NCBI GenBank assembly: GCA_949291295.1
Contig: CASEVE010000002.1
Location: 1 to 64,000, forward strand
DNA length: 64,000 bases
Direction of reading: 5' to 3'
DNA from: an uncultured Olsenella sp.
GTDB taxonomy: Bacteria > Actinomycetota > Coriobacteriia > Coriobacteriales > Atopobiaceae
The first letter of the stretch is position 1. Each line of letters opens with the position of its first letter. Under the pieces are notes generated by a model. It saw nothing but the letters and a program-made list of their open reading frames with translations, ran no database searches and was not told the origin of the DNA. Positions 12,610 through 49,497 of this stretch are shown here, one piece after another. The translations under genes were made by a program, and so were the position numbers.

Positions 12610-12622
12610 GCAAAGCTCCCTA

Positions 12623-12776
12623 GATAGCGCTCCTGCAGGTTGTTGCAGACAGTCCTGCGGGTCTTTCCCGCAGGCCCACCCGACGCCCGCGCCCGAGCGC
12701 CAAGTTCGGCGGACTCGCCTTCCCGTGGGTCACAGCCTGCCGGCTCGCCACGGCTCTTCTTGTCCGCGCCTCTATC
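12623..12776 (-). promoter_or_regulatory. Lysine riboswitch (L box) of the lysA-dap operon
   Basis: The minus strand reads as a lysine aptamer. It has 5' GATAGAGGCGCGGAC (12776 down), an AAGAAGAG bulge, GGGAAGGCGAGTCCGCCGAA ending at 12705, GGACTGTC (12655-12648) and 3' GGAGCGCTATC ending at 12623. GATAG (12772-12776) pairs with CTATC (12623-12627) as P1. A perfect CCTGCGGG/CCCGCAGG hairpin (12654-12674) is an internal arm. The ribosome site (12616-12621) sits one base past P1, so control of translation initiation is likely. No separate U-tailed terminator was seen between aptamer and lysA. Recognition rests on comparison with the conserved core of known L boxes. Confidence 0.93.
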
Positions 12777-12786
12777 GTGTGAGGCC

Positions 12787-33022: not shown

Positions 33023-33134
33023 GCGCAGGGTCCTCCTGAGATTGGGAGCTACATACGGCGACTATCTTAGCCCGACATGGCGCCTCTTCAAAAAATGCCT
33101 AAAAGGACTTGCGCGAGAACAGATTAGGAAGCGC

Positions 33135-33534
33135 GCCGAGAAATGCCGGCCGCTGTACCGGGCGCGCAGCACAGGTGCTGAGAAATGCTGGCCGGTGTAC
33201 CGGGCACGCTGCATAGGTGCCGAGAAATGCCGGCCGGTGTACCGCGCCGCAAAGGCATGTGCCGAGAAGCTTACCGGTGTACCAAAGCGGCAGCTATTGT
33301 GCCGAGGAATCGTCATATCTGTACCATCGCCGCTTTTGGAAGGGTACACCTTCGGTCATTTCTCGGCGCCCACGCTGACCAGGCGGTACACTGACCGGCA
33401 TTTCTCGGCACCTGCCGGGGAGCCTGGTACACAAGCGAGCATTTCTCGGCGCCCGCCCGATCAAGTGGGTACATCCGGAGGCTTTTCTCGGCTCCCATAA
33501 ATTCGACCGGATGCGACTAAGGGTCTTTCTCGGC
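33135..33534. repeat. Phased 42-bp repeat array in two inverted arms (array A)
   Basis: The gap 33023-33653 has no gene but holds this array. Five forward units of about 26 bp (pattern GCCGAGAAATGCCGGCCGG then TGTACC) start at 33135, 33177, 33219, 33261 and 33301. Five inverted units follow, with their TCTCGGC blocks at 33361, 33403, 33444, 33486 and 33528. Spacing is 40-42 bp, close to four helical turns. The roughly 16-bp stretches between units differ from one another. The outer units are the most degenerate. Confidence 0.93.
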
Positions 33535-33604
33535 ATCAACCTGCTCGAACAAGTACCGTCAGCGAACATACCAGGCACGCAACCACACGCGACACCTAGA
33601 CAGC

Positions 33605-46145: not shown

Positions 46146-47444
46146 ATGAGATCCATGAGACGGCTCGCCTGCGCAAAGGCATTCTTCATCTGCATCCTTG
46201 CTGCGACGGCCGCGGCCTTCGCGCTGCCCTCGACGGCGCGCGCGGCAGGAACCCAGGACATGTGGCGCCTCTACAACCCCTACACCGGAGAGCACCTCTA
46301 CACGGCGAGCACCGTTGAGAGAAATGCGCTCGTGACGGTTGGCTGGGAGGCCGAGGGCGTGGGCTGGGTTGCGCCGACGCACTCAGGCACGCCGGTCTAC
46401 CGTCTGTACAACCCCTATGTAAATGGTGGAGACCACCACTACACCACGAGCGAGCAGGAGTGCTATGCCCTTGTTGACGTGGGCTGGATCGACGAGGGCA
46501 TCTGCTGGTACTCCGACGACGCCCAGACCATTGCGATCCGCAGGCAGTACAACCCCTACGCCACAACCGGAACGCACAACTACACGCCGGATGCCAACGA
46601 GGCGACAACGCTCGTCTCCCGCGGCTGGAAGGACGAGGGGACGGGGTGGTATGCGGTGGTGCGAGGTGACGTCACAACCAGCTCGGGCGGGATTACCGTC
46701 ACCGGACCGAGCGGATTTACCGGCACGGCGGAGTTCCAGCGCCTAAAGTGGGAGATCTCATCGGTATACGACGCGGGGCGCGACATTGGTCTCGTGCTCT
46801 ACGACATGCAGACCGGACGCAAGATCAGCTGCGGCTCTCAGACGCTGCGCTATACGGCAAGCAGCGTGAAGGCAATGTACAGCGCCTGGGTCTACGAGCG
46901 CTACGGATCGGCGGGAAGCGCGCGCTCGCTTGTCGAGGACGCACTGGTTGACTCCTCCAACAGCGCATACAGCGCACTTGTGAGAAGGTACGGCTTTTCC
47001 GGTTTCCGCTCCTGGTTGAGCGCCAACGGAGCGAGCGGGGTTTACGTGCCCAGCGGATCGTACTACGCCTTCATGTCTGCCGACGAGGCTGCAAACGTCT
47101 GGGAGCACATCTGGCGAAACAGCCTCATGGGCGGGTCCGCCTCATCCGAGCTGGGAGGTTTTCTCTCAAGAACGCACCACTCGGCCATGGGCGGGCTGCT
47201 CCGAAAGCGATACGTTACCTGGAGCAAGCCGGGCTGGTACCCAATGGACGGGTCCTATACCTCAACAAACGACATGGGTATCGTCTTTTCCGACTGCGGC
47301 CCCTATGTCCTTGTGGTCATGACCAACTACCCCGAGAACTTTGGCCCGCTCTTCTCGATCGTGGATGCCGCCAACGCCGCGCACGGCAAGCTCTGCGGCG
47401 GAAGCACGGAGTCGCTCATGGGCGGAGGCGTCTCGCTTTCGTAA
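46146..47444 (+). CDS. Secreted beta-lactamase/D-Ala-D-Ala-peptidase-fold protein with N-terminal DUF5648
   Basis: This 432-residue secreted protein has a signal peptide, three DUF5648 repeats (TGEHLYT, GGDHHYT, TGTHNYT), then a serine-hydrolase domain. Likely motifs are TASSVKAMYS (SxxK nucleophile and base) and DSSNSAYSALV (SxN). SKPGWYP lies in the place of KTG, so that third motif is altered. The fold is like class A beta-lactamase or low-molecular-weight penicillin-binding proteins. A role in wall turnover is more likely than antibiotic resistance given the wall module, but neither is shown. Confidence 0.82.
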   Translation: MRSMRRLACAKAFFICILAATAAAFALPSTARAAGTQDMWRLYNPYTGEHLYTASTVERNALVTVGWEAEGVGWVAPTHSGTPVYRLYNPYVNGGDHHYTTSEQECYALVDVGWIDEGICWYSDDAQTIAIRRQYNPYATTGTHNYTPDANEATTLVSRGWKDEGTGWYAVVRGDVTTSSGGITVTGPSGFTGTAEFQRLKWEISSVYDAGRDIGLVLYDMQTGRKISCGSQTLRYTASSVKAMYSAWVYERYGSAGSARSLVEDALVDSSNSAYSALVRRYGFSGFRSWLSANGASGVYVPSGSYYAFMSADEAANVWEHIWRNSLMGGSASSELGGFLSRTHHSAMGGLLRKRYVTWSKPGWYPMDGSYTSTNDMGIVFSDCGPYVLVVMTNYPENFGPLFSIVDAANAAHGKLCGGSTESLMGGGVSLS

Positions 47445-47478
47445 CGTCGCCGCAGACGGCGGGACGCGTGTCCCGCGC

Positions 47479-47923
47479 GCCGATAAGTCCTGCCTGGTGT
47501 ACCAGCACCATAGCCTGTGCGCCGAGATATTCCGCGTGCCGTACCAGCGCAGTGACCCGCGCGCCGAGATAACTCGCCCTCTGTACCAGCCCCACGGGAT
47601 GTGCGCCGAGAAAACCCGACAGGTGTACCGCGCGCGGGCATGCGCGGCCGAGATAACCCGCCCGGTGTACCGCGTTGGCCTACGGCGCGCCGAGAAAACC
47701 CGAGGGGTGTACAAAGCTCGTGAGCACGCCCGGTACACTCCACGGTTTTTCTCGGCGCCGGCGGGCGGGCACGGTACACTCCGCGGTCTTTATCGGCACC
47801 CTCTCCCCCGTTTGGTCCGTGAAGCGGGACCGCTCTGAGCTTGCACGAGCGAGTCCGGTACACTCGAGCGAGCTTTGCGACACCTGACGCATGAGCACGG
47901 TACACCGGGCGGTTTTTCTCGGC
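47479..47923. repeat. Phased 42-bp repeat array in two inverted arms (array B)
   Basis: This array fills most of the gene-free gap 47445-48105. Six forward units (pattern GCCGAGAWAACCCG...GTGTACC) start at 47479, 47521, 47563, 47605, 47647 and 47689, exactly 42 bp apart. Inverted units have TCTCGGC-type blocks at 47750, 47791, about 47875 (degenerate) and 47917; the slot at 47833 is eroded. Unit 6 and the first inverted unit are near-perfect reverse complements. The remaining 47924-48105 shows no gene. Confidence 0.93.
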
Positions 47924-48105
47924 AGATAAGCGATGCCAGCAGCACCACGCGCAAGCAGTCCCATAGTCGCAAATGACAAAATGCAGCGCGCTCAGCCTGG
48001 TAAAGGGCACCGTTTGCGCAGGTGAATGACCATCAACCTTGGCCGGGGACTATCATGTTCAGCATCCCAAATCCACACCGCTCTCACACGCTGACAGGAG
48101 GCCTC

Positions 48106-49497
48106 ATGCACACACGTCTGTCTACACGCCTAAGAAGAGCCGCGGTCCTTCTTGCCACCATCGCCGCGGTGGTGCTCTCGATGCCGCTCATGGCACAAGC
48201 GCAGGAAGCCAATCTTCGCGTCGAGCTCGGCGACAGGGGCTTTGTTGCCACCTCGACCTTTGAGCTCAACCAGAAGGGCGTTCGCGAGCAGGCGCTCGCC
48301 GCAGTGAGCGAGCTTCGCGAGGATGCCCTCAACGACTCTCGCGTCACGTTCTACTCAGGCTACAGCAAGGACTACGTGACCGTTGCGGAGTACCTTTCGG
48401 ACTATGACATCACCATCGAGGAGTACCTCAACCCGCACTGGTCAAACGCGTTCGAGCGCATAGCGATCCAGCGCGCCGCCGAGACCCACGTCCGAGAGGG
48501 TCATGTGCGTCCCTCCGGCGAGGAGTGCTTCACCGCAATGCCCGCCGATGCCACCTCGTGGAACGCAGAGATCCTTGCCTCAAAGGCCGACATCAAAAGC
48601 GCCGTCGACCTTTGGGCAGCCGAGAAGTCCCTCCTGCTGAGCGGAGAGCGCGACCAAGCCATCCACTACCTAACGCTTGTGAACCCCGACGCCTACGCCT
48701 ACGGCTTTGCCGCCATAGACGGTCGGGTTGCGGGAGAGGCCGGCGGCAGGCCGTACACCGGAAGCCTTGACAGCAACCCCACCAACCTCGAGGGCTCCTA
48801 CGAGATCTCTGTGCGCCTTCCCATCGAGGCGCTAAGCGACAGCCTCGCTCTGGCGCAGAACACCGTGGGGCTGAACGAGAGCGTTGAGCTCCAGGCGCTT
48901 CTTTCCCACAAGAGGCGCACCTTTGTGGTGGACGGCATCTGGGCGTCGCTCTCCCCCAACCTTGCCGAGGTCTCCAAGGAGGGCGTTGCCACGGGCAAGA
49001 AGTCGGGCGCGGCAACCGTCAGGGTCTCCGTTGCCACCAACGGAACGCTCACGAGCAGGGACCTGACGCTCAACGTTGGCGTCAAGACGATGTATCGCTT
49101 CTACAACCAGTGGACAGGCGAGCATCTCTATACCGCCGACCCAACGGAGCGCGCAGCGCTCGTCGAGCAGGGCTGGACCGCCGAGGGGGCGGCCTGGGTT
49201 GCCCCGGAAACCTCGAGCACACCCGTGTATCGCCTCTACAACCCCTTTGTTCCCGGCGGAGACCACCACTACACCACGAGCAGGCAGGAATACGACGTCC
49301 TCAAGGAGAGCGGGTGGAAGCAGGAGGGCATCGCCTGGTACTCAGACGACGCTCACGGCGTGGAGCTCTACAGGCTCTACAACCCCAATGCAACCACCGG
49401 CACGCATCACTACACCGCAGACCCCAACGAGCGAGACACGCTCAAGAGGCTCGGCTGGCGCTATGAGGGAAAGGCCTGGTATGGCATGAAGCTGTAG
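48106..49497 (+). CDS. Secreted divergent CAP-like protein with C-terminal DUF5648
   Basis: The product has about 463 residues; the ATG at 48106 has GGAGG 5 bp upstream, and the longer frame from 48022 is dismissed. Signal peptide ending MAQAQ. The N-terminal domain resembles CAP (RIAIQRAAETHVREG, RPSGEECFTAM, WNAEILAS, YAYGFAAI) but lacks the usual SGH and NxxxG segments, so it is divergent. A Big_2-like Ig module follows (VELQALLSHKRRTF, GVATGKKSGAATVRV), then three DUF5648 repeats (TGEHLYT, GGDHHYT, TGTHHYT). The function is unknown. Confidence 0.82.
   Translation: MHTRLSTRLRRAAVLLATIAAVVLSMPLMAQAQEANLRVELGDRGFVATSTFELNQKGVREQALAAVSELREDALNDSRVTFYSGYSKDYVTVAEYLSDYDITIEEYLNPHWSNAFERIAIQRAAETHVREGHVRPSGEECFTAMPADATSWNAEILASKADIKSAVDLWAAEKSLLLSGERDQAIHYLTLVNPDAYAYGFAAIDGRVAGEAGGRPYTGSLDSNPTNLEGSYEISVRLPIEALSDSLALAQNTVGLNESVELQALLSHKRRTFVVDGIWASLSPNLAEVSKEGVATGKKSGAATVRVSVATNGTLTSRDLTLNVGVKTMYRFYNQWTGEHLYTADPTERAALVEQGWTAEGAAWVAPETSSTPVYRLYNPFVPGGDHHYTTSRQEYDVLKESGWKQEGIAWYSDDAHGVELYRLYNPNATTGTHHYTADPNERDTLKRLGWRYEGKAWYGMKL

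What the first reader, a model, noticed from the sequence alone, without database searches (positions are those of the whole stretch)
33135..33534. Array A: five forward and five inverted units at 42-bp spacing
Forward starts 33135, 33177, 33219, 33261, 33301; inverted blocks 33361, 33403, 33444, 33486, 33528. Inner units are near identical while outer ones decay. The intervening 16-bp segments are unrelated to each other. It lies between a glycosyltransferase start and the cold-shock gene.
Basis: seen in the sequence. Interest (0 to 1): 0.72.

Follow-up and report, generated by a model that had tools for sequence, protein, structure and literature searches.

The report
Genome-wide helically phased convergent site arrays
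In a gut bacterium (Olsenella/Thermophilibacter), about 45 gaps between genes carry rows of about ten copies of a 28-base signal, all on one face of the double helix and pointing at a centre, and related species carry the same design with a different signal, which suggests docking platforms for an unidentified DNA-binding protein.

Summary
The array is real and is one of about 45 in this genome (429 units, 8 in the control). The unit is an asymmetric 28-bp motif (RY-GCCGAGAAA-N10-TGTACC-R). All 40 arrays examined have the order forward then inverted, never the reverse. Spacings are multiples of 10.5 bp, also across the centre. 403 of 404 units lie in clusters and none in genes. Key bases are conserved between species while spacers drift. 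Four other species of the genus carry arrays with the same logic, a different unit and a 31-bp pitch. A further four carry a third unit in the same register, as dyads in the one examined. Array A is absent from the same gene gap in three relatives, so it was probably gained in this lineage. It is not coding and not a relic. The REP/RAYT membership test failed: transposase genes here sit beside a different repeat, and one carrier has none. Best reading: binding platforms on duplex DNA for a lineage-specific protein, probably architectural. The protein was not found. No precedent was found in the open-access library searched.

The parts
33133..33160 (+). forward unit 1 (28-bp motif)
33175..33202 (+). 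forward unit 2
33217..33244 (+). forward unit 3 (best score, 40 bits)
33259..33284 (+). forward unit 4, with a 2-bp deletion in the middle segment
   Evidence: GCCGAGAAG-N8-TGTACC
33299..33326 (+). forward unit 5 (innermost, 22 bits)
33342..33369 (-). inverted unit 1 (innermost, 22 bits)
33384..33411 (-). inverted unit 2
33425..33452 (-). inverted unit 3
33467..33494 (-). inverted unit 4
33509..33536 (-). inverted unit 5, degenerate (keeps TTTCTCGGC, has lost GGTACA)
   Evidence: read directly; below the motif threshold
47477..47925 (.). second array of the same family in the window (++++++---)

Best explanation
Each array is a multi-site binding platform on double-stranded DNA for one sequence-specific protein that is still unidentified. 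Each 28-bp unit would be contacted at about three successive major grooves (GCCGAGAAA, the GC-rich middle, TGTACC). Units repeat every four helical turns (three in a sister group of species), so all bound copies lie on the same face of the DNA. The two arms face each other with a fixed rotational setting across the centre. Cooperative assembly would give one polar, two-armed complex 300-800 bp long at about 45 intergenic places. The most likely use is chromosome architecture (bridging or condensing DNA, or anchoring a partner). Shown here: family, polarity, phasing, intergenic restriction, conservation of key bases, and a changed unit in sister species. Inferred: a protein ligand (about 0.8) and an architectural role (about 0.35).
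For: 429 units against 8 control hits in the whole genome. 40 of 40 arrays run + then -, with no -+ junction. Same-strand spacings are 42/41 (285 of 330), the rest mostly 31-32, 52-54 and 62-64; +/- junctions are 34, 44, 55, 65, 76, 86. The best period is 10.5 bp, Rayleigh p about 2e-15 for junctions and 2e-6 for spacings that are not multiples of 42. The centre sequence is not conserved; only its phase is. 403 of 404 units are clustered and 0 of 404 lie in predicted genes although 84% of the DNA is coding. In well-aligned orthologous arrays key bases are 96.3% identical, spacers 87.4%, flanks 90.6%; Fisher p 1e-8. The same architecture with another unit (TCTAGRAAT-N7-CTTGTC, pitch 31) occurs in four species, 16 of 16 arrays + then -. 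A third unit, with the same convergent distances of 33 and 43 bp in the shared 25-bp register, occurs in G008. Each genome is rich in one version only.
Against: No protein was identified, and nothing here shows binding or chromosome organisation. Distances between arrays fit random placement (CV 1.05; KS p 0.85 against exponential, one genome), so there is no sign of regular spacing. Most species of the genus lack abundant V1, V2 or V3 units, so any role is not essential to the genus. Arrays are gained or lost between close species. The motif holds about 31 bits, more than is needed to find about 430 sites, which could partly reflect common descent by copying.
Confidence: 0.62

Rival explanations
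1. A selfish, copying repeat: arrays are non-autonomous mobile elements spread by a recombinase or transposase and then enlarged in place; phasing reflects how that enzyme binds its sites.
For: Array A is absent from the same gene gap in G014, G013 and G022, so a block of about 500 bp was probably gained. Distribution is patchy across the genus. Units plus spacers are duplicated inside arrays, in direct and inverted sense. Two poor carriers hold just two arrays, each pair flanking a 7- or 15-kb segment.
Against: No defined ends or target duplications could be seen. Many arrays sit at orthologous sites in three species. No array unit lies within 1.5 kb of the Y1 transposase genes tested, and carrier G005 has no Y1 match. 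No Mu/Tn7-type domain match in 31 genomes, but that search rang in no control either. The best repeat of array A elsewhere in the genome is only 78% identical over 113 bp.
Confidence: 0.25
2. Operators of a global transcription regulator: each array controls its neighbour genes.
For: Intergenic, protein-site-like units; ten of 35 arrays with both neighbours seen lie between divergent genes.
Against: All gene orientations occur, including four convergent pairs. Neighbour genes share no function. Solitary units are almost absent (1 of 404). Array A is missing from the same gene pair in relatives.
Confidence: 0.09
3. RNA element: the array is transcribed and folds into a long hairpin (small RNA or terminator).
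For: The array folds far better than shuffles as RNA (z -10.8), as any inverted repeat would.
Against: Spacing follows 10.5 bp, not the 11 of A-form RNA. Spacers at mirrored ranks are not clearly more alike than at other ranks, and arms are often unequal. Gene contexts do not favour 3' ends. No Rfam family. The one terminator-like site found is within chance.
Confidence: 0.04
4. Coding repeat or relic of a gene (42 bp = 14 codons).
For: A 159-aa ORF runs over array A with AEKCRPVYRA-like repeats.
Against: Units occur in both orientations; spacings of 31, 32 and 41 bp break the frame. No array unit lies in a predicted gene. Relatives have no gene at the site.
Confidence: 0.01

Closest known systems
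REP/BIME elements with RAYT transposases (Nunvar et al. 2010, PMC2817692)
   Same: High-copy, intergenic, regularly spaced, inverted copies; species-specific; reported to bind proteins and suggested to act in chromosome organisation.
   Different: BIMEs alternate orientation and their REPs are palindromes. Here units are not palindromes, all one way in each arm, and helically phased. The RAYT genes tested here are not flanked by the unit; the same genome has a separate repeat beside a RAYT gene.
Plasmid partition or maintenance iteron arrays (R1 parC/ParR, from memory; KfrA repetitive operator, PMC7783346)
   Same: Arrays of short sites bound cooperatively by one protein; parC also has two clusters of five (from memory).
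   Different: Those are single plasmid loci beside their own protein gene. Here there are about 45 chromosomal loci with no common neighbour gene, arms are inverted and pitch is 42 or 31 bp.
TAACTGA intergenic direct repeats of Beggiatoaceae (PMC4679880)
   Same: Many intergenic repeat sets of unknown ligand; no common function of downstream genes; patchy distribution.
   Different: Heptamers near start codons, in one sense, proposed to act on RNA. Here 28-bp two-armed phased arrays, usually about 100-300 bp from gene starts.
Mu/Tn7-type transposon ends with several inward-facing transposase sites (from memory)
   Same: Several asymmetric sites per end, left and right ends in opposite sense, lineage-specific.
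   Different: Up to ten sites per arm, almost no DNA between arms, no cargo, no defined termini; no Mu-transpos_C match in the genus (a search silent in its controls too).

Membership tests
REP/BIME (RAYT-associated) | rayt gene flanked by two copies of the repeat in inverted orientation | tested here: not met
   All three Y1 genes of G000 and those examined of G014, G030, G015, G024 and G003 have no array unit within about 1.5 kb; the G000 C39 gene is flanked by a different TGACAGGGTA repeat
REP/BIME (RAYT-associated) | presence of the rayt gene correlates with repeat abundance | tested here: not met
   G005 has 164 V2 units and no Y1_Tnp match; 28 of 31 genomes have Y1_Tnp whether or not they carry arrays
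REP/BIME (RAYT-associated) | unit is an imperfect palindrome, alternating orientation in BIMEs | tested here: not met
   V1/V2 motif asymmetric; 56 of 56 arrays +...+-...-. The V3 version does alternate
CRISPR array | identical direct repeats with unique spacers and nearby cas genes | tested here: not met
   Units diverge, both orientations, about 45 loci with varied neighbours
Mu/Tn7-type transposon ends | cognate DDE transposase with Mu C-terminal domain in the genome | tested here: inconclusive
   0 of 31 genomes for PF09299, but the search rang in no control genome
Mu/Tn7-type transposon ends | defined termini with target-site duplication | tested here: inconclusive
   Empty site in G014/G013/G022 too diverged to place the ends
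Protein-binding site array (operator or centromere type) | helical phasing and conservation of contact bases | tested here: met
   Period 10.5 bp; key bases 96.3% against spacers 87.4%
Protein-binding site array (operator or centromere type) | a protein that binds it | not testable with these tools
   Needs pull-down, ChIP or DAP-seq

The most novel reading that the evidence does not exclude
A previously undescribed class of bacterial chromosomal element: dispersed, convergent, helically phased arrays that nucleate a polar one-faced nucleoprotein complex. A lineage-specific DNA-binding protein would co-evolve with its arrays, switching sequence specificity and pitch (4 or 3 turns, or 6-turn dyads) between sister species.
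Probability: 0.5. Interest if true: 0.88.

Novelty: categorically new. Interest (0 to 1): 0.77.

Why it matters
If right, this is a genome-wide DNA-organising or self-spreading code in a common gut lineage, with a natural experiment built in: closely related species use the same geometry with different words. That makes recognition, cooperativity and helical phasing directly testable. It also warns that assemblies of these genomes tend to break at the arrays.

Tried and rejected
Coding relic (frame-breaking spacings, empty sites). RNA hairpin or small RNA (10.5-bp phase, spacers not mirrored). Operators (no shared neighbours or orientation). REP/RAYT (transposase genes examined sit beside other repeats; G005 has none). 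Mu/Tn7 ends (no domain hit, control silent). Phage origin (0 of 2.9 million viral contigs with two neighbouring exact units). A machinery gene between the two arrays of poor carriers G028 and G023: only metabolic and PTS genes. Calothrix, Mediterranea and Planctomycetaceae hits are unrelated tandem repeats. A conserved centre sequence: none. Regular spacing along the chromosome: not seen. Literature: nothing matching in the open-access library.

Full report
WHAT IS THERE. Array A is as described: five forward and five inverted copies at about 42 bp between a glycosyltransferase and a cold-shock gene. The window holds 12 matches with up to 3 mismatches against 0.01 expected; five of these belong to a second array at 47477-47925.

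GENOME-WIDE FAMILY. The genome (G000, 2.28 Mb, 72 contigs) has 219 forward and 210 reverse units with up to 2 mismatches; the reversed-pattern control has 8. A position weight matrix from 383 units gives the 28-bp motif RY-GCCGAGAAA-WSCCGSCYGS-TGTACC-R, about 31 bits. In 770 kb of stretches, mostly chosen around hits, 404 units score 12 bits or more, against 0 in reversed sequence; 403 are in clusters and none lies in a predicted gene, though 84% of the DNA is coding. With 383 of the 429 units in the stretches that hold these 40 arrays, I estimate about 45 arrays in the genome.

ARCHITECTURE. In all 40 arrays every forward unit precedes every inverted unit (a few arrays at contig ends show one arm only); there is no -+ junction. 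Same-strand spacings: 42 (259), 41 (26), and a minority at 31-32, 52-54, 62-64 and 84. The +/- junctions are 34, 44, 54-55, 65, 75-76 and 86 bp. The best common period is 10.45-10.55 bp, Rayleigh p about 2e-15 for junctions. No centre sequence is conserved; its length is about 6 + 10.5n. So the constraint acts on rotational position on B-form DNA, which points to proteins on one face of the duplex.

EVOLUTION. Many arrays occupy orthologous gaps in T. provencensis and the Olsenella MAG CASEGE, with unit numbers changed. In well-aligned pairs key bases are 96.3% identical, spacers 87.4% and flanks 90.6% (Fisher p 1e-8 key against spacer). In more diverged pairs key bases mostly stay at 83-97% while spacers fall to 33-63%, though alignment of repeats favours this. 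Spacer copies occur within arrays about 50 times (same arm) and 28 times (opposite arm, inverted) more often than between arrays (odds ratios). Growth is thus local, yet copies end up with the correct polarity. For array A, T. provencensis (G014), Ca. O. pullicola (G013) and G022 have the same glycosyltransferase and cold-shock genes with a short gap and no array. The simplest reading is a gain of about 500 bp in the G000 lineage.

OTHER VERSIONS. V1 units are abundant only in G000, G014 (247) and G030 (401) among 80 relatives. At the comF site, where V1 carriers have an array, G003, G005, G015 and G024 have an array of a different unit. This V2 unit, TCTAGRAATCGSCGNCCTTGTC, occurs 72 to 164 times in those four genomes and almost nowhere else, controls zero. 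Sixteen of 16 V2 arrays run + then -, with spacing 31 or 62 and junctions mostly 41 or 72 bp. A third unit, GGACNNNAANNNNNNCGAGTGCGC, is frequent in G008 (75) and present in G002, G001 and G021. In G008 it forms dyads: divergent 28, convergent 34 or 44, so 62 per repeat. Aligned on AGRAA...TG the three units share one 25-bp register, and their convergent distances then coincide (V1 33, 43, 54, 64; V2 43, 74; V3 33, 43). That agreement was not used to make the alignment and argues for one kind of ligand. V3 alternates, so its membership is less sure.

CONTEXT. Gene contexts are ++ 12, -- 9, -+ 10, +- 4. Neighbour genes are diverse. Gaps between V2 array loci in G005 (36 gaps, mean 40 kb) fit random placement. 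dnaA is not near an unusual cluster in G005 (array at C14:32.5 kb, dnaA at 58.5 kb). Viral contigs hold none.

WHAT IT IS NOT. Long Y1-transposase genes of the RAYT type occur in 28 of 31 genomes, but none examined is flanked by array units. In G000 one sits beside its own TGACAGGGTA repeat, which recurs in the genome, and G005 has no Y1 gene at all. No Mu-type transposase domain was found, but that search was silent in its controls. Rfam has no match to the array.

MECHANISM. Shown: a family of convergent, helically phased, intergenic arrays with conserved contact bases and lineage-specific units. Inferred: a DNA-binding protein covers each 28-bp unit and assembles cooperatively along one face from both arms. 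I think an architectural role most likely, because arrays are dispersed, context-free and multi-site. A self-spreading element is the main rival and could be true at the same time. The cognate protein is the missing piece; whole proteomes of carriers and non-carriers could not be compared with the searches left.

IDENTITY OF GENOMES. Contig lengths tie G014 to T. provencensis JAUDEA (122,938 bp), G026 to T. gallinarum JADCJZ, G013 to Ca. O. pullicola DXAB and G028 to CASFQX. G030 fits CASEGE by contig number.

Noticed in passing
window 12617-12782, minus: Lysine riboswitch (Rfam RF00168, 82 bits).
   Followed up: no
window 61489 and 61523; many G000 stretches: A separate repeat family, TGACAAAGGTGACAGGGTA, which also flanks a Y1-transposase (RAYT-like) gene at G000:C39 (L285): probably a true REP/RAYT system in this genome.
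   Followed up: partly
L120 2319 and 2623: Copies of that REP-like repeat lie just outside both ends of one V1 array (2340-2579), in the same orientation.
   Followed up: no
L230 5389-5612 and 12210-12495; L183 8603-8894 and L184 3793-4251: G023 and G028, which otherwise lack arrays, each carry two arrays flanking a 7-kb PTS operon or a 15-kb metabolic segment: arrays as borders of transferred DNA?
   Followed up: partly
L226 about 11590 and L227 about 15200 (G007): Another palindromic family, ATACGCGACTTCCAACG...CGTTGGAAGTCGCGTAT, with 62-bp repeats.
   Followed up: no
L306, L307 and L260 (G008): V3 dyads at 62-bp period, alternating, up to about ten units at one locus.
   Followed up: partly
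L068 near 534-596 (Olsenella, water deer ileum): Array with nearly exact 42-bp copies including spacers, perhaps a fresh expansion.
   Followed up: no
L119 17669-17921: raiA RNA (RF03072) lies just downstream of comF, whose upstream gap holds an array.
   Followed up: no
window 46146-47444 and 48169-49497: Array B lies between two DUF5648 proteins, one with a beta-lactamase-type domain.
   Followed up: no
L117 7797-9497: Two low-scoring genes beside an array, one an HNH endonuclease; the flank is 95.6% identical to the T. provencensis locus.
   Followed up: no
G000 contigs C4, C13, C14, C21, C65; G005 C1, C7, C10: Several contigs end inside or next to arrays, so the arrays break assemblies.
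   Followed up: no
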